Below, in pieces: positions 6,177 through 19,864 of a DNA stretch of 64,000 bases. The first letter of the stretch is position 1, and every line of letters begins with the position of its first letter. Both the position numbers and the translations under genes were made by a program. Source of the DNA: Dysgonomonas sp. 520 (lineage in GTDB: Bacteria > Bacteroidota > Bacteroidia > Bacteroidales > Dysgonomonadaceae); contig NZ_QVMP01000013.1 in assembly GCF_010501095.1 (NCBI RefSeq), forward strand, positions 26,106 through 90,105. The letters are read 5' to 3'. The notes beneath the pieces were generated by a model, which did no database searches, was not told the origin of the DNA, and worked only from the letters and a program-made list of their open reading frames with translations.

Positions 6177-6725
6177 ATGGAAAAACAAGGCTACATATCC
6201 GAAATTAAAGAGCATACAGGGATAAATGTCAATCGTTGCTATCAGTGTGGAAAATGTTCCGCAGGTTGTGCCGTGACTGACGAGATGGATTATCCGCCTA
6301 GTATGGTAATGCGTATGCTGCAAACTAACGACGACGAAAACTACAAAAGTGTATTACAGTCGGAGTCTATATGGTTGTGTATTACTTGTCAGAATTGTGT
6401 GACTCGCTGTCCCATGCAAATTGATATTCCTCGATTGATGGATTATATGCGTGAACAGTCTTTACAGAAGAAAATGGTGAGTAAGAAAGCAAAAAATATA
6501 GTCTCTTTTCATAAATCATTTCTCGATCCTATCCGTTTCACGGGGCGTTCGTATGAGATCGGTCTTGTGGCAGGATATAAGATGCGTACGTTTAATTTAC
6601 TGCAAGATTTGAATGTTGCGCCAAGTATGTTTATGAAAGGCAAACTACCTATTCTACCCGAAAGGATAGAGGGGCGGAAACAAATAAAAGAGATCTTCGA
6701 TAAAACTAAAAAAGAAGATAAATAA
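6177..6725 (+). CDS. hdrC: Heterodisulfide reductase subunit C-like Fe-S protein
   Basis: CYQCGKCSAGCAVT and CITCQNCVTRCPMQID 4Fe-4S motifs; followed by hdrB and hdrA. Confidence 0.9.
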   Translation: MEKQGYISEIKEHTGINVNRCYQCGKCSAGCAVTDEMDYPPSMVMRMLQTNDDENYKSVLQSESIWLCITCQNCVTRCPMQIDIPRLMDYMREQSLQKKMVSKKAKNIVSFHKSFLDPIRFTGRSYEIGLVAGYKMRTFNLLQDLNVAPSMFMKGKLPILPERIEGRKQIKEIFDKTKKEDK

Positions 6726-6803
6726 AGGCCTCAGACCTACAACTACTTACAACTAAAAAAACGAGGTCGGTTGTTAGAACCGATTGATTAACAATATAGA
6801 ACA

Positions 6804-7649
6804 ATGAAAATAGGATTCTACCCGGGGTGTTCCCTGAAAGGAACTTCTTCCGAATATGCCCAATCTACATTGGCTTTAGCAAAGGCTTTCGATATTGATT
6901 TGGTAGAAATTACCGATTGGAATTGCTGTGGTGCAACTGCCGCTCACAATCTTAATCATGAATTGGCAACAGCCCTGCCTGCCAGAGTATTGGCACTGGC
7001 AGAGAAAGATGGTCTGAAGGAGATTGTTGTGCCATGCGCAGCCTGCTACAATCGTTTGAGTGTTACTCAGCATGAATTGAACGAGAATCAGGATCTGAAA
7101 AATAGAGTAGAGGAAATTCTTGAAATGCCTCTTAGCGGAAATCTTGAGATTCTGAATGTCATGCAGTTTATCGACAGGTATATTGCTGGTAAGATAGAGG
7201 GAAAAGTTGTTAAACCATTCAATCACAAAGTGGTATGCTATTATGGTTGTTTGCTTGTCCGTCCTCATGATGTATTGAAATTTGACCGTTTGGAAGACCC
7301 TCAGTCGATGGATATTCTGATGAAAAAAATTGGGGCAGATTCGATGGATTGGGGTTATAAGACAGAGTGTTGCGGAGCAGGATTTTCTGTTTCACGGACT
7401 GATATCGTGGGCAAACTTTCGGGTAAAATAGTAAAAGATGCTTACGACAGAGGTGCGCAAGCTATTATTGTAGCTTGCCCGATGTGCCAGTCGAATCTGG
7501 ATATGCGTCGTCCTCATATTAATAGTTATTTGAAAACCAAGATAGACATACCTGCAATGTATATAACGCAGGCAATAGGTTTGGCGGTTGGTGTGAGTAG
7601 AGAAGATTTAGGCTTGAAAAAACTGTTTGTAGCACCAACGTTCGCTTAA
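6804..7649 (+). CDS. hdrB: Heterodisulfide reductase subunit B-like, two CCG domains
   Basis: GFYPGCSLKGTSSEY...WNCCGATAAHNLN...PCAACYNRL and a second set CYYGCLLVRP...TECCGAGFS...CPMCQSN. Confidence 0.93.
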   Translation: MKIGFYPGCSLKGTSSEYAQSTLALAKAFDIDLVEITDWNCCGATAAHNLNHELATALPARVLALAEKDGLKEIVVPCAACYNRLSVTQHELNENQDLKNRVEEILEMPLSGNLEILNVMQFIDRYIAGKIEGKVVKPFNHKVVCYYGCLLVRPHDVLKFDRLEDPQSMDILMKKIGADSMDWGYKTECCGAGFSVSRTDIVGKLSGKIVKDAYDRGAQAIIVACPMCQSNLDMRRPHINSYLKTKIDIPAMYITQAIGLAVGVSREDLGLKKLFVAPTFA

Positions 7650-7670
7650 TATTTTAAACAGAGAAAGAAT

Positions 7671-9674
7671 ATGTCAAAAATAGGAGTATTTGTTTGCCAT
7701 TGTGGTGAGAACATCAGTGCGACTGTCGATTGTAAGAAAGTTGCGGAAGAGGCTGCCAAGTTAACAGGCGTTGAAGTGAGTCTCGACTATAAGTATATGT
7801 GTTCCGATCCGGGTCAGACGATTATAAAAGAGGCAATAAAAGAAAAGGGTTTGACAGGGGTTGTGGTAGCTGCCTGCTCGCCACGTATGCACGAGCCAAC
7901 ATTCAGAAAAGCTTGTGCCGAAGCGGGATTGAATCCTTTTATGTGCGAAATGACAAACCTGCGCGAGCATTGTTCGTGGGTGCACGAAAAAAATGACCAA
8001 ACCACCGAAAAAGCTATTGATCTTGTTCGCATGTTGGTTGAAAAGACCAAACTGAACAAGCCTTTGAACGAGATAAAAGTTCCCGTTTCGAAGAAAGCAT
8101 TGGTTATTGGAGGTGGTATTGCCGGAATTCAGGCAAGTTTGGATATTGCGAATGCCGGTCATCAGGTTATTCTGGTTGAGAAAGAGGCTTCGATAGGAGG
8201 GCACATGTCTCAACTATCCGAAACATTCCCAACACTCGACTGCTCTCAATGTATCTTAACGCCTCGAATGGTGGAAGTGGCTCAGCATCCGAACATTACA
8301 CTTTATAACTATGCCGAATTGGAAAGCCTTGATGGTTTCATCGGAAACTTTAAGGCAACAATCCGCCTGAAAGCGAAAAGCGTTGACCCTAAAGCATGTA
8401 CGGGTTGCGGTGCTTGTTACAACAAATGCCCGAAGAAGAAGATCCCCAGTGAATTTAACGAAGGATTGGGTATGCGTACGGCTATCTATACGCCTTTCCC
8501 TCAGGCTGTTCCGAATAAGCCTGTGATTGATAAAGAGAATTGTAACTATTATAAGAACGGCAAATGTAAGATTTGCGAAAAAGTATGTCCTACGGGAGCA
8601 ATTGAATTTGACAAACCGGACGAATTTGTAACGGAAAATGTCGGAGCAATTGTTTTAGCAACAGGCTTTAATGTGCTGAAACCTGATTTCTTCCCGGAAT
8701 ATGGATATGGTCAGTTTAAGGATGTGATCACAGGTCTTCAGTTCGAAAGGCTTGCATCTGCATCAGGACCAACCTTAGGCGAAATTCGCCGTCCATCAGA
8801 TGGTAAAGTGCCTCAGAAAGTGGTGTTTATAGCTTGTGCAGGTTCTCGTGACCCGGCTAAAGGTATTCCATATTGTTCTAAAATATGTTGTATGTATACT
8901 GCCAAACATGCTATGCTTTATCAACATAAAGTGCATGGTGGAGAATCCACAGTTTTCTATATGGATATTCGTGCAGGAGGAAAGAACTATGAAGAGTTTG
9001 TTCGTCGTGCGATAGAAGAAGACGGAGCAAACTATGTTCGTGGACGTGTTGCACGTATCTATGAGAAAGACGGAAAACTGATAGTAAAAGGAGTGGATAC
9101 GTTGTTGGGCGCAAAACCTGTTGAAATAGAAGCAGATATGGTTGTTCTTGCTAGTGCGGGTGTTGCAAATTGCGGGGCAGAAGAATTAGCTCAAAAAATG
9201 CACGTATCGTACGACCCATATAAATTCTTTGCGGAGGCTCATCCCAAATTGAAGCCGGTAGAGACAAATACGGCAGGTATCTATTTGTGTGGTGCATGTC
9301 AGGCTCCGAAAGATATTCCCGATACGGTGGCAACGGCTTCCGGTGCTGCGGCTAAAGTGATTGGGTTGTTCTCGAAAGACGAACTGACTCGCGAGCCTTT
9401 GGTGGCTGTGGTAAACAGGATAGCCTCGCACGATGTATCTACTTGTGTAGGATGTTTTATGTGCCAGACGGCATGTCCTTATCAGGCAATTGAGCGGGAA
9501 GAGGTGAAGAACAGAGCCGGAGAAGTGATAAAGACAGTTGCCAGAGTGAATCCGGGACTGTGTCAGGGTTGTGGAACTTGTGTTTCCTTCTGTCGATCTA
9601 AGTCGATTGACATTCAAGGTTTCTCTAACGAGCAAATGTATGCCGAAGTATTGGCTGTTTTGAACACCCCTTAA
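7671..9674 (+). CDS. hdrA: Heterodisulfide reductase subunit A-like flavoprotein
   Basis: GVFVCHCGENI, VIGGGIAGIQASLDIANAG (FAD), CTGCGACYNKCP, CVGCFMCQTACPYQAI, CQGCGTCVSFCRSK. Confidence 0.95.
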   Translation: MSKIGVFVCHCGENISATVDCKKVAEEAAKLTGVEVSLDYKYMCSDPGQTIIKEAIKEKGLTGVVVAACSPRMHEPTFRKACAEAGLNPFMCEMTNLREHCSWVHEKNDQTTEKAIDLVRMLVEKTKLNKPLNEIKVPVSKKALVIGGGIAGIQASLDIANAGHQVILVEKEASIGGHMSQLSETFPTLDCSQCILTPRMVEVAQHPNITLYNYAELESLDGFIGNFKATIRLKAKSVDPKACTGCGACYNKCPKKKIPSEFNEGLGMRTAIYTPFPQAVPNKPVIDKENCNYYKNGKCKICEKVCPTGAIEFDKPDEFVTENVGAIVLATGFNVLKPDFFPEYGYGQFKDVITGLQFERLASASGPTLGEIRRPSDGKVPQKVVFIACAGSRDPAKGIPYCSKICCMYTAKHAMLYQHKVHGGESTVFYMDIRAGGKNYEEFVRRAIEEDGANYVRGRVARIYEKDGKLIVKGVDTLLGAKPVEIEADMVVLASAGVANCGAEELAQKMHVSYDPYKFFAEAHPKLKPVETNTAGIYLCGACQAPKDIPDTVATASGAAAKVIGLFSKDELTREPLVAVVNRIASHDVSTCVGCFMCQTACPYQAIEREEVKNRAGEVIKTVARVNPGLCQGCGTCVSFCRSKSIDIQGFSNEQMYAEVLAVLNTP

Positions 9675-9768
9675 ATCTCCAAATGAAGGGGATTATATCT
9701 CTGGTTTAAGTGGAAAAAGTGAAATTATTATATATAAAACAAAATAAAAACCTCCCTTTTGGGGAGGA

Positions 9769-10278
9769 TTGGAGGGGTTTATGAATAACGAATTTGAACC
9801 AAAAGTAGTAGCTTTCGTGTGCAACTGGTGTACGTATGCCGGAGCCGACCTGACGGGAACCAGCCGCATAAAATATGCTTCGAATGTGAAGATTGTACGC
9901 TTCCCATGTACGGGGCGTATCGACTTTATGCTGTTGCTGAAAGCATTTGCAAATGGTGCGGATGGTATCATCGTTTCGGGTTGCCATCCCAATGACTGTC
10001 ACTATACATCAGGAAATTTCCATGCCCGTCGCCGTTGGATACTCTTCCGAAGTCTGCTCGATTTTATGGGAATTGATATCAATCGTATTCAATTTTCGTG
10101 GGTATCGGCTGCCGAGGGAGCTAAATGGGCAGATATTGTGAATAAGACAGTTACGAACATTCGGGAACTGGGTCCTTACATGGAATATCGTAGGGCGGCT
10201 AATTTTTTGGAAGCGAACGAAGAAGAGTTGACGAAAGAATTGGCTCGAAATAAAGAAGAGGAGGTGAAACATGGCTGA
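9769..10278 (+). CDS. flxD: MvhD/FlxD-like hydrogenase iron-sulfur subunit
   Basis: VVAFVCNWCTYAGADLTGTSRIKY...RFPCTGRID...GCHPNDCHY motif of the MvhD family; real ATG at 9781 (MNNEFEPKV) likely. Confidence 0.88.
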   Translation: MEGFMNNEFEPKVVAFVCNWCTYAGADLTGTSRIKYASNVKIVRFPCTGRIDFMLLLKAFANGADGIIVSGCHPNDCHYTSGNFHARRRWILFRSLLDFMGIDINRIQFSWVSAAEGAKWADIVNKTVTNIRELGPYMEYRRAANFLEANEEELTKELARNKEEEVKHG

Positions 10279-11059
10279 ACTGAACAGTAAAGTAAAAGAG
10301 CTTTTTGAAAAAGACCTGATAGACATTTTCATCGGTTACGAAGAAGGAACACGAAACCCTCGTCCATATTTTGCTTATTCGGCGCAAGATGCAGATAATC
10401 TTGTGTTTAACGATAAGTGTCAAGGAAATCTGGCAGTTTATCTTACCCGTAAAGATTTAGTCGGAGGAAAACGGGTTGGTATTTCTGCATCCTATTTTGC
10501 ATTGAAAAGTATTTCGCAATTGTTCGACGAAAACCAACTGAAAGAAGATCTTCTTATCGTTTTAGGAATGAAAGAAGATGGTTCTATTCTGGAGTTTAAA
10601 GGATTGGACGAAATAAGAACATATTTGAGCGAAGCGAAAGCCCCATCGAAACAAAAAGATGATGAATTGTTGAAAGAATTGTCTGAAATGTCTCAGGCTG
10701 AACGTTGGCAGTTTTGGTCAGACGAATTATCCAAATGCTTCAAATGTTATGCTTGCCGTGCAGCTTGCCCGATGTGTTATTGTACAAAATGTATCATTGA
10801 GGTGAATCGCCCGCAATGGATACAGCCTTGGATTTCGACGCAGGGCAATATGGAATGGCAAATAAACCGTGTGATGCACATGGCCGGGCGTTGTTCCGAC
10901 TGTGGATCGTGTGGCGCGGCTTGTCCTATCGGAATCCCGATTCATTTGCTGACTCATATGATGACGAAAACAGTTGCAGCTAATTTCGGTGAATCGAACG
11001 AGCAAGGAAATGTGCTTTCTACATTTAAACCGGATGACAAAGAAAACTTTATATTGTAA
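10271..11059 (+). CDS. flxC: FlxC-like 4Fe-4S protein of the Hdr-Flx complex
   Basis: CFKCYACRAACPMCYCTKC and CSDCGSCGAACPIGIP; overlaps flxD by 8 nt. Confidence 0.8.
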   Translation: MAELNSKVKELFEKDLIDIFIGYEEGTRNPRPYFAYSAQDADNLVFNDKCQGNLAVYLTRKDLVGGKRVGISASYFALKSISQLFDENQLKEDLLIVLGMKEDGSILEFKGLDEIRTYLSEAKAPSKQKDDELLKELSEMSQAERWQFWSDELSKCFKCYACRAACPMCYCTKCIIEVNRPQWIQPWISTQGNMEWQINRVMHMAGRCSDCGSCGAACPIGIPIHLLTHMMTKTVAANFGESNEQGNVLSTFKPDDKENFIL

Positions 11060-11065
11060 GAAGTT

Positions 11066-12088
11066 ATGGAAAGAAAATATATATCCCAAGACTCATTAAA
11101 AACGTGGTTGAGCAAACTCAATGATGAGGGCAAACATATTTATGCACCTGTGGCAAAGGGCGATAAGACGGATTTTAAGCATATAAAATCGGTCGGCGAA
11201 ATTTCGATGGAGCATATTCAAACAACACAATCGGCTAAAGCAATTGCATTTCCTCGCACCGAAAAACTATTTTCCTACACAAAGAATAAGGGGGATGTTT
11301 CTCTGCAAGATTACGATTCGAGCGTGATTCCCGAAACAGTTGTTTTTGGTTTGCATCCTTGTGATGCAGCCGGATTTCGCCCGTTATCAAATATTTTCAA
11401 TTGGGGTACACCCGATACGCCTTTCAACGAAAGGATGAAACGTACCACGCTGATTGCCTTAAGCTGTTCGCAGTGCGACGAGGCGTGTTTTTGTACGTCA
11501 GTGAACGGAAGTCCCGGAAATACCGAGGGCAGCGATATTCTTCTTACAAAGATTAAAGACGGTTATTTGGTTGAAGTGGTAACCGATAAGGGCAAGGAAC
11601 TCGTATCTAAATATGAAAATCTATTTGACGCAGCACCGGAGGTAAACAAGGAAGAATTTTTAGCCAACGTTCCTCAAAAGTTCGGTTTGGAAGAACTGCA
11701 ACAGCGAATATCCAATATGTTCGAAAGCGAGGTCTGGAAACAGCAATCGGCTCGTTGTCTTGGCTGTGGAGCTTGTGCATTTGTTTGTCCTACATGTGCT
11801 TGTTTCGACATTCAGGAAGACAATAAGGGCAGTAAAGGAAGCCGGCTTCGCTGTTGGGATTCTTGCGGATTCTCCCTGTTTACTGTTCATACATCGGGGC
11901 ACAATCCTCGTGAAGTGCAGAGCCAGAGATGGAGGCAACGTTTGTTGCACAAATTTTCGTATATGCCCGAACGCCTTTCGGTAAGAGGCTGTACGGGTTG
12001 TGGACGCTGTTCAAGGGCTTGTCCGGTGGATATGAATATTGCGGAGCATCTTAGCTCAATTAGTAAATTGGAAAATGTAGAAAAATAA
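11066..12088 (+). CDS. flxB: FlxB-like 4Fe-4S dicluster protein (sulfhydrogenase-beta-like)
   Basis: CLGCGACAFVCPTCACFDI and CTGCGRCSRACPVDMNI; operon position between flxC and flxA. Confidence 0.8.
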   Translation: MERKYISQDSLKTWLSKLNDEGKHIYAPVAKGDKTDFKHIKSVGEISMEHIQTTQSAKAIAFPRTEKLFSYTKNKGDVSLQDYDSSVIPETVVFGLHPCDAAGFRPLSNIFNWGTPDTPFNERMKRTTLIALSCSQCDEACFCTSVNGSPGNTEGSDILLTKIKDGYLVEVVTDKGKELVSKYENLFDAAPEVNKEEFLANVPQKFGLEELQQRISNMFESEVWKQQSARCLGCGACAFVCPTCACFDIQEDNKGSKGSRLRCWDSCGFSLFTVHTSGHNPREVQSQRWRQRLLHKFSYMPERLSVRGCTGCGRCSRACPVDMNIAEHLSSISKLENVEK

Positions 12089-12112
12089 GTGTTAACCGAT
12101 AACTGATAACTG

Positions 12113-12952
12113 ATGACTGAAAAAAATATATATCTTCCTTATTTAATGACTGTTGAGAAAATAACTCAAGAGGCTCCGGGTGTGAAAACTCTGAGATTGA
12201 AATTTAAGGATGAAGAAGACGAGAAAAATTTTAGTTTCAAAGCAGGACAATTTGCCGAATACTCGGCTTTTGGCGAAGGGGAGTGTACTTTTTGTATAGC
12301 TTCCTCACCAACCCGTAAAGGCTATGTGGAATGTACTTTCCGTGAAGCAGGGCGGGTTACTTCGGCTTTGGCTAAATTGGAAGAAGGAGACACGATGGGT
12401 TTCAGAGGCCCTTATGGAAATACGTTTCCGATTGATGAATGGAAAGGAAAAAACTTGCTATTCATAGCCGGTGGTATCGCCTTGCCTCCTATGCGTTGCG
12501 TGATTTGGAATGCCTTGGATACACGCGAAAATTTCAAGGATATTAGCATCCTTTATGGTGCAAAATCGGTTGCCGATCTGGTTTATAAGCACGAATTGAA
12601 AGAGTGGGACGAAATGCCTGACGTGAAACTGGTAACAACCGTTGACCCGGGTGGCGAAACTCCCGACTGGAAAGGAGAGGTTGGCTTTGTTCCTTCCGTA
12701 TTGGAAAAAATGAACCCTTCTCCCGAAAATACGATTGCAATTGTTTGCGGGCCTCCCGTAATGATAAAGTTTACTTTTCCTGTACTTGAAAAGCTCGGTT
12801 TTAAATCGGAGAATATCTACACAACTCTCGAAAACCGCATGAAGTGTGGGGTAGGGAAGTGTGGGCGTTGCAATGTCGGTAATAAATATGTCTGTAAAGA
12901 CGGTCCTGTGTTCTCGAAAGTGGAACTGGAATCACTACCTGCCGAATATTAA
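12113..12952 (+). CDS. flxA: FlxA-like FAD/NAD(P)-binding oxidoreductase (DHODH-K/ferredoxin reductase type)
   Basis: FKAGQFAEYSAFGEGECTFCIAS, LLFIAGGIALPPMRCVI, C-terminal MKCGVGKCGRCNVGNKYVCKDGPVF 2Fe-2S motif. Confidence 0.85.
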   Translation: MTEKNIYLPYLMTVEKITQEAPGVKTLRLKFKDEEDEKNFSFKAGQFAEYSAFGEGECTFCIASSPTRKGYVECTFREAGRVTSALAKLEEGDTMGFRGPYGNTFPIDEWKGKNLLFIAGGIALPPMRCVIWNALDTRENFKDISILYGAKSVADLVYKHELKEWDEMPDVKLVTTVDPGGETPDWKGEVGFVPSVLEKMNPSPENTIAIVCGPPVMIKFTFPVLEKLGFKSENIYTTLENRMKCGVGKCGRCNVGNKYVCKDGPVFSKVELESLPAEY

Positions 12953-12978: not shown

Positions 12979-13012
12979 CCTGGCTTAATCTTTTGTAAGT
13001 CAGGTTTTTTTT
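12979..13012 (+). terminator. Rho-independent terminator after hdr-flx operon
   Basis: cctggctta-atctttt-gtaagtcagg stem followed by T8, between convergent genes. Confidence 0.75.
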
Positions 13013-13724
13013 ATTTCGACATTCTCATTTTGTCCAAAATCGACAACAAATGATTGAGGGCGGGAATATCGTATCTGACATTGTTTTCCAGATTGTTGAA
13101 ATCGAGTTTGTGCACCAGTTTTTGAACTTGCCAGTATTTTTTCGAATAATTGCGTCCAACAAGGCGGTATATTCTATCTAAATCCTGAGACGGATGCTTC
13201 CTTTTCATTGCATTTTCGTGATAAGGGTCGAAGCCTAAATGACGTTTAATGAAATGACTAGTCAGCCTTTTATCTACCTTTTGCAAGTGGTTTGATTCGG
13301 CAAGAAACCAAGTTTCAATTTCTTGAACCACAACAATGAAGTCTATTTCTTCGTGATATTTATGGAACTTCTTAGGAATAAACTTCAAGCCATGCTCCAA
13401 CCGTTGCAAATCTTCTGTGGGTAAGGGGTAGAGGTCACGCATCCCGATAATGTAGCTGTAACCCGAATTAGCAAGAGAACCGACATTTTCCATCACTTCC
13501 GATTTTACCCTGTTGTCGGCTCCGCAGTCGTAAATCAAAGCTGTGTATTTGGGGTTCAGAGGGATGTTTTTCTTTTTTGCAATTTCGTATCTGGGCACGC
13601 TGGAGCCACCTCTCGACCGTTTCAGGATGATGGACACATTGTCTCGTCCCAGAGCCTCTTCCACAAGGCTGGTTACGAAAATCTGCTCAGTTTGTCCTTC
13701 TACAAATATTGCAATCTTTTTCAT
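13011..13724 (-). CDS. TOPRIM-like nuclease-fold protein (DUF4276-type)
   Basis: N-terminal AIFVEGQTEQIFV, LIYDCGADNRVKSEV, EIETWFLAESNHLQ; 1 nt after the AAA ATPase ORF. Confidence 0.7.
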   Translation of the reverse strand: MKKIAIFVEGQTEQIFVTSLVEEALGRDNVSIILKRSRGGSSVPRYEIAKKKNIPLNPKYTALIYDCGADNRVKSEVMENVGSLANSGYSYIIGMRDLYPLPTEDLQRLEHGLKFIPKKFHKYHEEIDFIVVVQEIETWFLAESNHLQKVDKRLTSHFIKRHLGFDPYHENAMKRKHPSQDLDRIYRLVGRNYSKKYWQVQKLVHKLDFNNLENNVRYDIPALNHLLSILDKMRMSK

Positions 13725-13725
13725 C

Positions 13726-14865
13726 TTAATCTTCCTGATCTATCGAAAATCCGTTCATATAAAATTGAGATGCCAGAAAGTCGAAGTTACTCATTCCGGT
13801 ATACTTGAAATCGTCAAAGTTTTGTTTCGAGTTGTAGTAGTTATAAAATATCGCTTTATTTGGCTTACGCTCTATTACAGACCAATATTCAAGAGGAATG
13901 GCGTTCATAATATAACGATCGTTGGTGGTGAAAATTACCTGAATTTTCGAATCTTTCAATTTCTTTATAATCAGGTCGATCAGTCCCTTCGAACGATCAA
14001 AATCCAATCCTTCGCCCAAATCGTCAATCAAAACGCAGAAAGAAACATTGTTGAGTAGAGCCATATTTAGTTGAACGATAAACGTCAATGCCCTGAACAT
14101 TCCCTGCGACATTTCCAACTGTCCTGTTTTTTCCTCAAGATCAAGCTCTTTCACATAAATTCCAATGCCTTTCGTGCTCTCTTGAATGCCAATGGAGTCG
14201 ATAGGATAGTCCAGAAACTTCATGTCTTCGATTATTTTCTGGTCGAAATTCTTGCCATACATTTTTTTTGCGGCATATACCATGTTCAGCACATCTTTGC
14301 GATTGGGCAATGTATGTTCCACATTTTTATCCAGTTCGTCCATGCTGTTTGCCAGTCTCTTTTTCTCGACCTGATTGGTGAAATTGGCTTTTTGCAGCGA
14401 ATATCCCCAAAGGTAAAAACTGCCTAAGTAGGGAAATTCGGGATTGGTATGATTGGATACGACAAGTTTGTTGTCATTTTCATCGAAATCTATAAATCCG
14501 TTTTTTTCTTCCGAATATATTTTGCGTTTTTTTCTGTCGAATTTACATTCTTTATTGATAAGTATCTGTTCCTCAATAACAACACTGTCCTTTACATGCA
14601 GGATGTACTCGTTTTTATCTCCGTCGTTATCAAAAACCAAATGATAGAAACTATCATTGAAAGGAATCTTTTCAATTTTTTTATCCAATGCCAGAAGTTC
14701 GGCAATCTCTCTGATTACCCCTAGAGTTCGGCTCTTTCCGGCGGCGTTTTTGCCTACAATCAGATTGATATTTCCGAATTGAACAAAATCATCGTTCCGG
14801 TCTTCAATCGACCACTCTTTAGGCTGACCCTCAAGCCTTTTGTATCTGAATGCTTTTAGTATCAT
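13726..14865 (-). CDS. AAA (AAA_21/OLD-like ABC-type) ATPase
   Basis: Walker A NLIVGKNAAGKSRTLGV; MSQGMFRALTF signature-like; Walker B FCVLIDDLGEGLDFDRSKGLIDLI; FTTNDRYIMN. Confidence 0.85.
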   Translation of the reverse strand: MILKAFRYKRLEGQPKEWSIEDRNDDFVQFGNINLIVGKNAAGKSRTLGVIREIAELLALDKKIEKIPFNDSFYHLVFDNDGDKNEYILHVKDSVVIEEQILINKECKFDRKKRKIYSEEKNGFIDFDENDNKLVVSNHTNPEFPYLGSFYLWGYSLQKANFTNQVEKKRLANSMDELDKNVEHTLPNRKDVLNMVYAAKKMYGKNFDQKIIEDMKFLDYPIDSIGIQESTKGIGIYVKELDLEEKTGQLEMSQGMFRALTFIVQLNMALLNNVSFCVLIDDLGEGLDFDRSKGLIDLIIKKLKDSKIQVIFTTNDRYIMNAIPLEYWSVIERKPNKAIFYNYYNSKQNFDDFKYTGMSNFDFLASQFYMNGFSIDQED

Positions 14866-14907: not shown

Positions 14908-15810
14908 TTAATCTGAAAGCGTAAATCTTGAAGAACCAATCCTGTTACCGTCTGCAAAAATATCGACACGATAGGTTCCGGGCATTAAAAATTCTTCAAC
15001 CTTCCAATACATTACAACAGAGGTTTCCTCACCCGTATATTCTACCAGTCTTTTCATCGAATAATTTACCTGTCTGTTTTCGTAAGCAAATGTATTTGAT
15101 GCACTTTTGGTCAACACACTATCGTCGGGTTTCATAATTCTCACATATATGTTTCTTTCTCCCGGTTCTGCGGTAATGTTTTTTGTGATGAGGAATGAAA
15201 CAACAAATTGCTCAATTTTCTTTATGTTTTTCTGGTCTTTTCCCTTTGCGTTTGTTGCTCTTACCGAGATATTTGTGGCATCCAACTTGGCTGCAAGGGT
15301 TACTTTCTCCGACAGGTTCGACTTTTCTTGCGATACCTGATTCAGTGCACGGCTTGTTTCCTGATATTTGTTCGTTATTTCAAGTTTTTCCTGTGTCAGT
15401 TGCTGATTGATTCTATTCAGGGAATCTATTTGTGCAACATACGATCTCAGTACCGATCGAAGTGTAGTTAACTCATCCTTAAGTCTTTTTATTTCTTTAG
15501 CATCGGACGATTTGGTTGCCTCAAGTTTTTTTATCTCTTCCATCAATCGTTGAACCTTAGTCTGTTCATTTTCAAGTTGATGAAGCAGAGAGTCGTTTCG
15601 TATATCGATTTTCAGCTCTTCATATTCTGCATCAAGGTTTTTATACTCATCCTCGATCTGTTGCCTCGAAAATTCAATTATTTCCTGATTCTCTTCCAGT
15701 TGTGTCTTTTGTTGGAGAATGAAGTACGCGGCAACCCCCAATCCGGCCAAAAGCAAGATGATGGCAACAATTAGAACATATTTTAATTTATTGTTTTTTT
15801 TCTCTTCCAT
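14908..15810 (-). CDS. Membrane-anchored coiled-coil protein, hypothetical
   Basis: N-terminal TM KYVLIVAIILLLAGLGVAAYFIL, long heptad-rich region, beta-rich C-terminal domain. Confidence 0.75.
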   Translation of the reverse strand: MEEKKNNKLKYVLIVAIILLLAGLGVAAYFILQQKTQLEENQEIIEFSRQQIEDEYKNLDAEYEELKIDIRNDSLLHQLENEQTKVQRLMEEIKKLEATKSSDAKEIKRLKDELTTLRSVLRSYVAQIDSLNRINQQLTQEKLEITNKYQETSRALNQVSQEKSNLSEKVTLAAKLDATNISVRATNAKGKDQKNIKKIEQFVVSFLITKNITAEPGERNIYVRIMKPDDSVLTKSASNTFAYENRQVNYSMKRLVEYTGEETSVVMYWKVEEFLMPGTYRVDIFADGNRIGSSRFTLSD

Positions 15811-16086: not shown

Positions 16087-17028
16087 ATGTCGAAAGTAAC
16101 TGTTGTTGGTGCAGGAAATGTGGGTGCAACATGTGCCAATGTTCTTGCATTTAAGGAAATAGCAGACGAAGTGGTAATGCTGGATGTGAAAGAAGGCGTA
16201 TCGGAAGGAAAGGCGATGGATATGAACCAGACAATTCAATTGTTAGGTTTCGATTCACGCATAAAAGGAGTTACAAATGATTATGCAGCAACAGCAAATT
16301 CGGATGTTGTGGTAGTCACTTCAGGTATACCCCGTAAACCGGGAATGACTCGTGAAGAGTTGATCGGTGTAAATGCGGGTATTGTAAAATCTGTGGTTGA
16401 AAACATCCTGAAATATTCTCCCGATGCTATTTTGGTGATGATTTCCAACCCGATGGATACAATGACATACTTGACTGCAAAAGTAACCGGCTTGCCAAAG
16501 CACCGTATCATCGGTATGGGTGGAGCTTTAGATAGTTCACGTTTCAAGTACTACCTGAGCGAAGCATTAGGAGTAAATGCAAATGAGGTGGAAGGTATGG
16601 TTATTGGTGGACATGGCGATACTACCATGATACCGGTAACACGCTTGGCTAACTATAAAGGAATTCCGGTGTCGGAACTGTTGACGCAAGAAACAATAGA
16701 GAAAGTTGCAGCCGATACTATGGTTGGTGGCGCTACTTTGACAGGGTTGTTGGGAACTTCGGCATGGTATGCACCCGGAGCGGCCGGAGCCTATGTGGTA
16801 GAATCTATTCTTCACGATCAGAAACGAGTTATGCCATGTAGCATTATGTTGGAAGGCGAATACGGACAAGAAGACATTTGCATAGGCGTTCCTGTTGTTT
16901 TAGGCCGTAAAGGTTGGGAAAAAATCATAGACCTGAAATTAACAGCCGACGAAAAGGCTAAATTTGAAGCATCAGCACTTGCTGTAAGGAAAACAAATAA
17001 TGTGCTACGAGAAACAGGGGCTATTTAA
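16087..17028 (+). CDS. mdh: Malate dehydrogenase
   Basis: KVTVVGAGNVGATCANVLA; GMGGALDSSRFKYYL; VIGGHGDTTMIPVTR. Confidence 0.97.
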   Translation: MSKVTVVGAGNVGATCANVLAFKEIADEVVMLDVKEGVSEGKAMDMNQTIQLLGFDSRIKGVTNDYAATANSDVVVVTSGIPRKPGMTREELIGVNAGIVKSVVENILKYSPDAILVMISNPMDTMTYLTAKVTGLPKHRIIGMGGALDSSRFKYYLSEALGVNANEVEGMVIGGHGDTTMIPVTRLANYKGIPVSELLTQETIEKVAADTMVGGATLTGLLGTSAWYAPGAAGAYVVESILHDQKRVMPCSIMLEGEYGQEDICIGVPVVLGRKGWEKIIDLKLTADEKAKFEASALAVRKTNNVLRETGAI

Positions 17029-19118: not shown

Positions 19119-19301
19119 TTAAGCTTTATGTGCTTCAACACCAGTAGCGTTTAATTTGCGTGCTTTCACTTTTACAATTTTCCCATTTTCGGAGAAGATA
19201 AGGTTACCATCTTCTTTTTGCTTCTTTTCGATTAATCGAGTGTAAGATAAGTTAAGACCTACTAATAATTTATTACGCAGAGCTATTTCCTTACGATTCA
19301 T
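19119..19301 (-). CDS. Small 60-aa basic protein translationally coupled to zeta-like kinase
   Basis: Start overlaps the stop of the zeta-like gene by 4 nt (ATGA); 60 aa, Lys/Arg rich. Confidence 0.65.
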   Translation of the reverse strand: MNRKEIALRNKLLVGLNLSYTRLIEKKQKEDGNLIFSENGKIVKVKARKLNATGVEAHKA

Positions 19302-19864
19302 ACGTTTTTTATTTGGTTAAAAATCTCTTTATCATGTTCCTCTATCACTTCTTCTTTTTTTCCTTCAACAATAATTTTGAAGGGGTTTTCAGAGTTATTC
19401 ACTACCATCCAATAATCTGAAATAGGAGTGTATAAAGAAAACAAATTTTGAATTCCCGATTTATATCTCCGCCTGATCACTTCTTTGGGCACATTGTGCC
19501 CGCCAGTCCTGACCCTGTCTTCGACTCTTTTAATAGCCAATTCCGGAGAACTGAGCCAAAAGTATAACAAAGTTACGAAATAACCTAATTTTTGCGCCTT
19601 TTTAATAAACGATGCATAAGATTTGGTTGCGAGGGTTGTTTCGATGGCAAAATCTTGTTTTTGCCTCAACATCTCTTCCATTCTCATTATCATTATGCGT
19701 CCGGCGTCAATAGAGGCTCTCTCCGGTTGAAAGGGAGAAAGTCCTCTGGCTATTTCGTCGGCATTGATAAACTCTTTGCAATCCAACATTTCGGGCAAAA
19801 TGGTATATGAGGCAGTCGTTTTGCCTGCACCATTGCACCCTGATATTATGTATAGATTTGGCAT
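19298..19864 (-). CDS. Zeta-toxin-like P-loop kinase
   Basis: LYIISGCNGAGKTTASYTILPE Walker A; FINADEIARGLSPF; AIETTLATKSY; RVRTGGHNVPKEVIRRRYKSGIQNL. Confidence 0.87.
   Translation of the reverse strand: MPNLYIISGCNGAGKTTASYTILPEMLDCKEFINADEIARGLSPFQPERASIDAGRIMIMRMEEMLRQKQDFAIETTLATKSYASFIKKAQKLGYFVTLLYFWLSSPELAIKRVEDRVRTGGHNVPKEVIRRRYKSGIQNLFSLYTPISDYWMVVNNSENPFKIIVEGKKEEVIEEHDKEIFNQIKNV

What the first reader, a model, noticed from the sequence alone, without database searches (positions are those of the whole stretch)
13011..14865. Compact two-gene AAA ATPase + TOPRIM-like module, candidate anti-phage defence system
Seen: a 379-aa ABC/AAA_21-type ATPase (GKNAAGKS Walker A; VLIDDLGEGLDF Walker B) followed after one nucleotide by a 237-aa protein starting IFVEGQTEQIFV, with DCGAD and EIETWFLAE motifs. 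Established: OLD-family nucleases and the two-gene PARIS system (AriA ATPase plus DUF4435 AriB) pair ABC-type ATPases with TOPRIM domains in phage defence. Inference: this pair resembles such a system split over two genes, but with a DUF4276-like rather than DUF4435-like partner. It sits alone between metabolic genes and may be a distinct, less-characterised variant.
Basis: partly seen in the sequence, partly recalled or inferred. Interest (0 to 1): 0.7.

Follow-up and report, generated by a model that had tools for sequence, protein, structure and literature searches.

The report
ATPase–nuclease pair, core in Dysgonomonas
Two adjoining genes encode an ATP-powered switch and a probable nucleic-acid-cutting toxin of a type best known from virus defence, but in the genus Dysgonomonas nearly every species carries the pair and passes it on vertically, so it is either a permanently kept immune system or one converted to another job.

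Summary
On the minus strand lie a 379-aa ABC/AAA_21 ATPase (A, 14865-13726) and, one nucleotide on, a 237-aa DUF4276 protein (B, 13724-13011). The kind is known. PADLOC catalogues ATPase + DUF4276 pairs as candidate system HEC-01, and PARIS, AbiL and MADS are tested relatives in architecture. B is neither AriB-type (DUF4435) nor clearly AbiLii/RloB-type. Its relation to Toprim rests on motif EGxxE, OLD-like_TOPRIM hits in relatives, and a weak fold match to an RloB-like protein. A and B stay adjacent in sparse relatives from many phyla, on a conjugative plasmid and in phage contigs, which supports defence. The surprise is inside Dysgonomonas. The pair is present in 22 of 23 near-complete genomes of two genus groups (Cas1: 8 of 23), is single-copy, is congruent with RpoB, is under purifying selection and lies outside any defence island. 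It sits beside mdh in four groups. Best reading: an AbiL/PARIS-like sensor-toxin immune module fixed in one genus. A domesticated, non-defence role is the main rival.

The parts
13726..14865 (-). A: 379-aa ABC/AAA_21-type ATPase (Rad50/SMC-like head), predicted sensor/regulator
   Evidence: ORF; Pfam AAA_21 1.1e-7; PADLOC AbiLi 3e-19, AriA 2e-12; AF2 pLDDT 86, Foldseek to Rad50/SMC heads and retron PtuA ATPases
14731..14754 (-). Walker A GKNAAGKS (A residues 38-45)
   Evidence: G43 and K44 invariant in 34 of 34 diverse homologues
14086..14112 (-). ABC signature-like MSQGMFRAL (A residues 252-260)
   Evidence: S253, G255 and R258 invariant in 34 of 34
13999..14037 (-). Walker B and D-loop CVLIDDLGEGLDF (A residues 277-289)
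   Evidence: D281, D282, E285 and D288 invariant in 34 of 34
13011..13724 (-). B: 237-aa DUF4276 protein, predicted Toprim-like metal-dependent nuclease effector
   Evidence: Pfam DUF4276 1.6e-11; OLD-like_TOPRIM 0.0042, below cut-off; a relative (L084) reaches OLD-like_TOPRIM 4.4e-7, over cut-off; PADLOC HEC-01B 1e-8
13686..13703 (-). VEGQTE (B residues 8-13): Toprim motif I-like EGxxE, E9 and E13
   Evidence: E9, G10 and E13 kept in all homologues including 10 of 10 found without this motif as bait
13515..13529 (-).
   Evidence: D66 D/N/V/I, D70 D/N/E/Y/G across homologues
13434..13436 (-). D97 (GxRDLYP), invariant acidic residue at the end of predicted strand 89-97
   Evidence: 37 of 37 plus 10 of 10 homologues; AF2 secondary structure
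13296..13322 (-). EIETWFLAE (B residues 135-143): E135 and E137 invariant
13140..13142 (-). K195, invariant lysine
14908..15810 (-). Neighbour, not part of the module: family-wide core membrane/coiled-coil protein, 42 nt upstream of A on the same strand; A-B lies beside it in four genus groups
   Evidence: present in 62 of 62 near-complete family genomes whether or not the pair is; order CC-A-B beside mdh

Best explanation
The pair is a two-gene sensor-toxin immune module of the AbiL / PARIS / HEC-01 kind. Protein A (ABC ATPase, inferred oligomer) would hold protein B inactive. A phage component or its effect on the cell would trip A, which releases or activates B, a Toprim-like two-metal nuclease (E9, E13, D97, E135, E137, K195). 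B would then cut an essential nucleic acid (tRNA or DNA, unknown) and stop infection. In Dysgonomonas the module was acquired before the sampled lineages split and has been kept as a vertically inherited near-core locus. Shown: the genes, motifs, obligate linkage, inheritance, selection, and occurrence of relatives in phage and plasmid DNA. Inferred: nuclease activity, inhibition of B by A, phage trigger, target.
For: A matches defence ATPase models best (AbiLi 3e-19, AriA 2e-12), in all 34 diverse homologues. All 37 diverse B homologues match DUF4276 and a PADLOC HEC-01B model, and 14 match OLD-like_TOPRIM (best 4.4e-7). A lies directly before B, usually overlapping or within a few nt, across many phyla. 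Relatives are sparse elsewhere: 9 of about 388 order genomes outside the family, 2 of 296 in the phylum. Distant pairs lie in phage contigs that also hold a terminase gene (L140), a tail gene (L143) and a gpJ-like host-specificity gene (L142), and on a conjugative plasmid near a PDDEXK nuclease and IS66. Neighbours of distant pairs include type IIG R-M, D12 methylase, YhcG and AbiLi/HEC-01A proteins. AbiLii-type TOPRIM toxins paired with AAA ATPases are toxic in E. coli (PMC3985639, PMC10440598), and AriB is a Toprim tRNase held by the AriA hexamer (PMC12409363).
Against: In Dysgonomonas the pair behaves as a core gene: 22 of 23 near-complete g3+g4 genomes, congruent with RpoB (Mantel r=0.928 for A and for B, 0 of 5000 permutations), no defence island. 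A control defence gene, Cas1, is scattered in the same 23 (8 of 23). No sequence or fold match of B to a solved nuclease. No DUF4276 paper was found in the library. No phage phenotype is known.
Confidence: 0.6

Rival explanations
1. A defence-type pair domesticated in Dysgonomonas for a cellular role (genome maintenance, RNA quality control or cell cycle), with phage defence lost or secondary.
For: Near-universal, single-copy, vertically inherited, under purifying selection, next to core genes and outside islands. A folds like Rad50/SMC heads and weakly matches RecF. Precedent: Cran1, an OLD-family ATPase of Saccharolobus with an essential cell-cycle role rather than defence (abstract of PMC12796447).
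Against: Absent from complete genomes in the group (G028, G094), relocated in g3, absent from 10 of 15 genera of the family. Faster evolving than its neighbours: A 44-51% identity against 62-68% (coiled coil) and 84-89% (mdh). Relatives elsewhere are sparse and found as phage or plasmid cargo.
Confidence: 0.22
2. A toxin-antitoxin or plasmid-exclusion module: B is a toxin neutralised by A and acts on plasmids, conjugation or stress rather than phages.
For: AAA ATPases neutralise TOPRIM_OLD toxins in the NetFlax tests (PMC10440598); gene order and translational coupling fit.
Against: No neutralisation was seen for the AbiL pair of F. nucleatum (PMC3985639). Occurrence inside phage contigs fits superinfection exclusion better.
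Confidence: 0.12
3. B is not a nuclease: DUF4276 here is a catalytically inert or differently acting partner of the ATPase.
For: DCGAD, the only DxD-like candidate named, is not conserved. Profile alignment to DUF4435 gives 0.24% and to RloB 4.1%, the latter over motif I only. AF2 model B matches only an uncharacterised Pyrococcus protein in PDB below 1e-3 (2p62, E 5.5e-4).
Against: Five acidic residues and a lysine are kept in all 47 homologues examined, as expected of a metal site. OLD-like_TOPRIM hits in relatives. The viral fold library includes an RloB-like protein at TM 0.46/0.50 over 255 columns, though E is only 0.03.
Confidence: 0.06

Closest known systems
HEC-01 (PADLOC Hma-embedded candidate; ATPase HEC-01A + DUF4276-type HEC-01B)
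   Same: Same two-gene make-up. All 37 B homologues match HEC-01B models; A matches HEC-01A models, though less well than AbiLi.
   Different: Window B is a distant member (best 1e-8, partial stretches). No experimental mechanism for HEC-01 was found in the library.
AbiL (AbiLi ATPase + AbiLii RloB/TOPRIM_OLD effector)
   Same: A's best PADLOC family is AbiLi (3e-19); bicistronic ATPase + TOPRIM-type partner; B shares motif I (EG..TE) and possibly the fold with RloB.
   Different: B matches AbiLii only at 0.004 and gives no RloB Pfam hit. True RloB genes lie elsewhere in a few of the genomes (e.g. G013).
PARIS (AriA ATPase + AriB DUF4435 Toprim tRNase)
   Same: A matches AriA (2e-12) over the whole model, and PDB AriA weakly as a profile (0.006); separate ATPase and Toprim-type genes.
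   Different: B is DUF4276, not DUF4435; no DUF4435 hit; profile alignment not significant.
MADS components MAD3 (AAA ATPase) and MAD4
   Same: Weak matches of A to mad3 (7e-5) and of B to mad4 (2e-4).
   Different: No other MADS genes beside the pair; scores far below NCBIfam cut-offs.
OLD / Gabija GajA nucleases
   Same: ABC ATPase plus Toprim chemistry; some B homologues hit OLD-like_TOPRIM or GajA models.
   Different: Two separate proteins, no helicase partner, DCGAD not conserved.

Membership tests
HEC-01 | DUF4276-type second protein | tested here: met
   Pfam DUF4276 1.6e-11, over cut-off; 37 of 37 homologues; PADLOC HEC-01B 1e-8
HEC-01 | HEC-01A-type ATPase directly upstream | tested here: inconclusive
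   Position met; HEC-01A 5.9e-7 but AbiLi and AriA score better
HEC-01 | Embedded in other defence loci | tested here: not met
   Essentially no defence genes beside the pair in Dysgonomonas; only beside some distant relatives
AbiL | AbiLi-type ATPase | tested here: met
   PADLOC AbiLi 3e-19; 34 of 34 homologues; no curated cut-off is shown for PADLOC
AbiL | AbiLii/RloB-type effector | tested here: not met
   AbiLii 0.0042 with scattered coverage; no RloB Pfam hit; hhalign 4% over motif I only
PARIS | DUF4435 AriB | tested here: not met
   No DUF4435 hit in Pfam; hhalign 0.24%; no DUF4435 in G000
PARIS | AriA hexamer activated by Ocr-like triggers | not testable with these tools
   Needs biochemistry
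MADS | Whole multi-gene MADS cluster around MAD3/MAD4 | tested here: not met
   Neighbouring genes are an Fe-S/oxidoreductase cluster and core genes; MAD3/MAD4 far below NCBIfam cut-off
Toprim superfamily | Motif I glutamate (EGxxE/D) between strand 1 and helix 1 | tested here: met
   E9-G10-x-x-E13 invariant, incl. 10 of 10 unbaited homologues; predicted strand 2-8, helix 10-25
Toprim superfamily | DxD motif | tested here: not met
   DCGAD varies; D97 or E135/E137 may stand in, not shown
Toprim superfamily | Toprim fold | tested here: inconclusive
   AF2 pLDDT 80; no known Toprim structure among the listed PDB hits, one RloB-like viral model at TM about 0.5, E 0.03
Anti-phage system | Lowers phage plating | not testable with these tools
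   Experiment needed

The most novel reading that the evidence does not exclude
In Dysgonomonas a mobile defence-type ATPase-nuclease pair has become a fixed core function, a bacterial parallel to the archaeal OLD-family protein Cran1: a domesticated nuclease with a cellular task rather than an immune system.
Probability: 0.22. Interest if true: 0.65.

Novelty: new member of a known kind. Interest (0 to 1): 0.42.

Why it matters
Defence genes are usually gained and lost quickly. Here a defence-type pair has been kept by nearly every species of a genus while CRISPR comes and goes in the same genomes. That gives a natural test of what makes an immune module permanent, or turns it into something else. 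It also points to the residues likely to matter in DUF4276, a family with no described function in the papers searched.

Tried and rejected
Catalytic DCGAD: rejected, not conserved. Membership of PARIS or strict AbiL: rejected on B. Defence island in the window: none; the PADLOC 'mad3' hits among Dysgonomonas neighbours (5 members) are most likely the five ordinary ABC-type ATPases found there by Walker motif. Close relatives in named phage records: none for A or B. PDB sequence profile of B: only chance-level hits. Profile alignment of B with DUF4435/RloB: no better than shuffled columns except motif I for RloB; some of the extracted rows were fragments, so this test is weak. Promoter/terminator scan gave no more than shuffles. 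dN/dS failed for diverged pairs. The neighbour comparison by PADLOC (against 47) gives counts per family, not per protein, so it is qualitative. The E9/E13 invariance in alignment A5 is biased because FVEGQTEQ was a search bait; it was re-tested on unbaited homologues.

Full report
What is there. Two minus-strand genes, A (14865-13726, 379 aa) and B (13724-13011, 237 aa), are separated by one base. A is an ABC-type ATPase (AAA_21 1.1e-7) and B a DUF4276 protein (1.6e-11), both over the Pfam cut-offs. One side holds an Fe-S/flavin oxidoreductase cluster (to 12952, plus strand). The other holds a family-wide membrane/coiled-coil gene (14908-15810) and malate dehydrogenase (16087-17028). No defence gene or mobile element was seen in the immediate neighbourhood.

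Distribution. In the window's taxonomic family, B is found in 31 of 101 genomes, confined to five genus groups: g3 23 of 25, g4 5 of 6, plus g1 (own), g11 and one of three in g13. Among genomes at least 90% complete and at most 5% contaminated, 22 of 23 in g3+g4 carry it. Cas1, a control defence gene, is in 8 of the same 23. Outside the family the pair is sparse: 9 of about 388 genomes of the order and 2 of 296 of the phylum, plus scattered cyanobacteria, spirochaetes, planctomycetes, proteobacteria and others.

Vertical inheritance. In 20 genomes the distances of A and of B each follow RpoB (Mantel r 0.928, 0 of 5000 permutations), and the A+B tree recovers the g3 and g4 clades as RpoB does. 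The order mdh / coiled-coil / A / B is kept in g1, g4, g11 and g13, while the genes beyond B differ. In g3 the coiled-coil/mdh pair stays together but A-B sits elsewhere. Close pairs show dN/dS 0.04-0.13. A and B nevertheless diverge faster than their neighbours: 44-51% and 51-61% identity, against 62-68% and 84-89%.

Linkage and mobility. In almost every distant locus with enough sequence, A directly precedes B, often with a 4-nt overlap. Distant pairs occur in phage contigs: L140 has a terminase large subunit in the same 9.5 kb, L142 a gpJ-like host-specificity gene, L143 a tail/tape-measure relative. They also occur on a conjugative Paraburkholderia plasmid near a PDDEXK nuclease and IS66, and within a capsule-type locus on a Bacteroides finegoldii plasmid. 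Neighbours of distant pairs include type IIG R-M, D12 methylase, YhcG nuclease, AbiLi and HEC-01A proteins alongside ordinary metabolic genes. Neighbours in Dysgonomonas show almost none.

Protein evidence. Against PADLOC, A scores best with AbiLi (3e-19) and AriA (2e-12), and all 34 diverse homologues match both. The A model (pLDDT 86) resembles Rad50 and SMC ATPase heads and the PtuA ATPases of retrons. All 37 diverse B homologues match DUF4276 and a HEC-01B model; 14 match OLD-like_TOPRIM, one at 4.4e-7, over the cut-off but covering only part (6-55 of 67) of that short model. The B model (pLDDT 80, shallow alignment) has a strand-helix-strand start with E9 after strand 1. Its only PDB match below 1e-3 is an uncharacterised Pyrococcus protein (2p62), and a viral RloB-like model gives TM about 0.5 at E 0.03. 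The proposed DCGAD motif is variable; E9, E13, D97, E135, E137, W139, Y193 and K195 are invariant, including in 10 homologues found by HMM or tblastn without that motif as bait.

Mechanism. The best-supported reading is by analogy with tested systems. In PARIS an AriA hexamer sequesters AriB, a Toprim tRNase, until a phage protein triggers release (PMC12409363). AbiLii-type TOPRIM proteins are toxic, and AAA partners neutralise some of them (PMC3985639, PMC10440598). Applied here, A is the sensor and inhibitor and B the nuclease effector. Nuclease activity, target and trigger are inferred, not shown.

Classification. Works like: AbiL/PARIS, probable. Member of: the DUF4276 + ATPase candidate group HEC-01, as a distant member; not PARIS (no DUF4435); not strict AbiL (no AbiLii/RloB). 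HECs are Hma-embedded candidates from guilt-by-embedding, of which several have shown antiviral activity (PMC12988326); whether HEC-01 is among them was not found.

Verdict. That leaves open domestication to another role.

Noticed in passing
window 6177-12952 (+): Gene cluster resembling a complete flxABCD-hdrABC electron-bifurcating set (HdrC/B/A-like, FlpD/MvhD, two Fe-S proteins, FAD/NAD oxidoreductase). The 262-aa member (10271-11059) has full-length matches in only 10 of 101 family genomes, half of them in g4.
   Followed up: partly
window 19298-19864 (-): Orphan 188-aa zeta-toxin-like AAA_33 kinase (Zeta_toxin 3.6e-13) between ordinary genes, with no antitoxin noticed.
   Followed up: no
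window 14908-15810 (-): Uncharacterised membrane/coiled-coil protein present in all 62 near-complete genomes of the family, divergent from mdh in the Dysgonomonas groups.
   Followed up: partly
L187:6935-8726: A distant ATPase + DUF4276-like pair inserted inside a capsular-polysaccharide-type gene cluster on a Bacteroides finegoldii plasmid.
   Followed up: no
L142:1-8732: Distant pair downstream of a gpJ-like host-specificity gene in a phage contig, in a position like a cargo slot.
   Followed up: partly
L170: A separate RloB/AbiLii-type gene in G013, a genome that also carries the DUF4276 pair.
   Followed up: no
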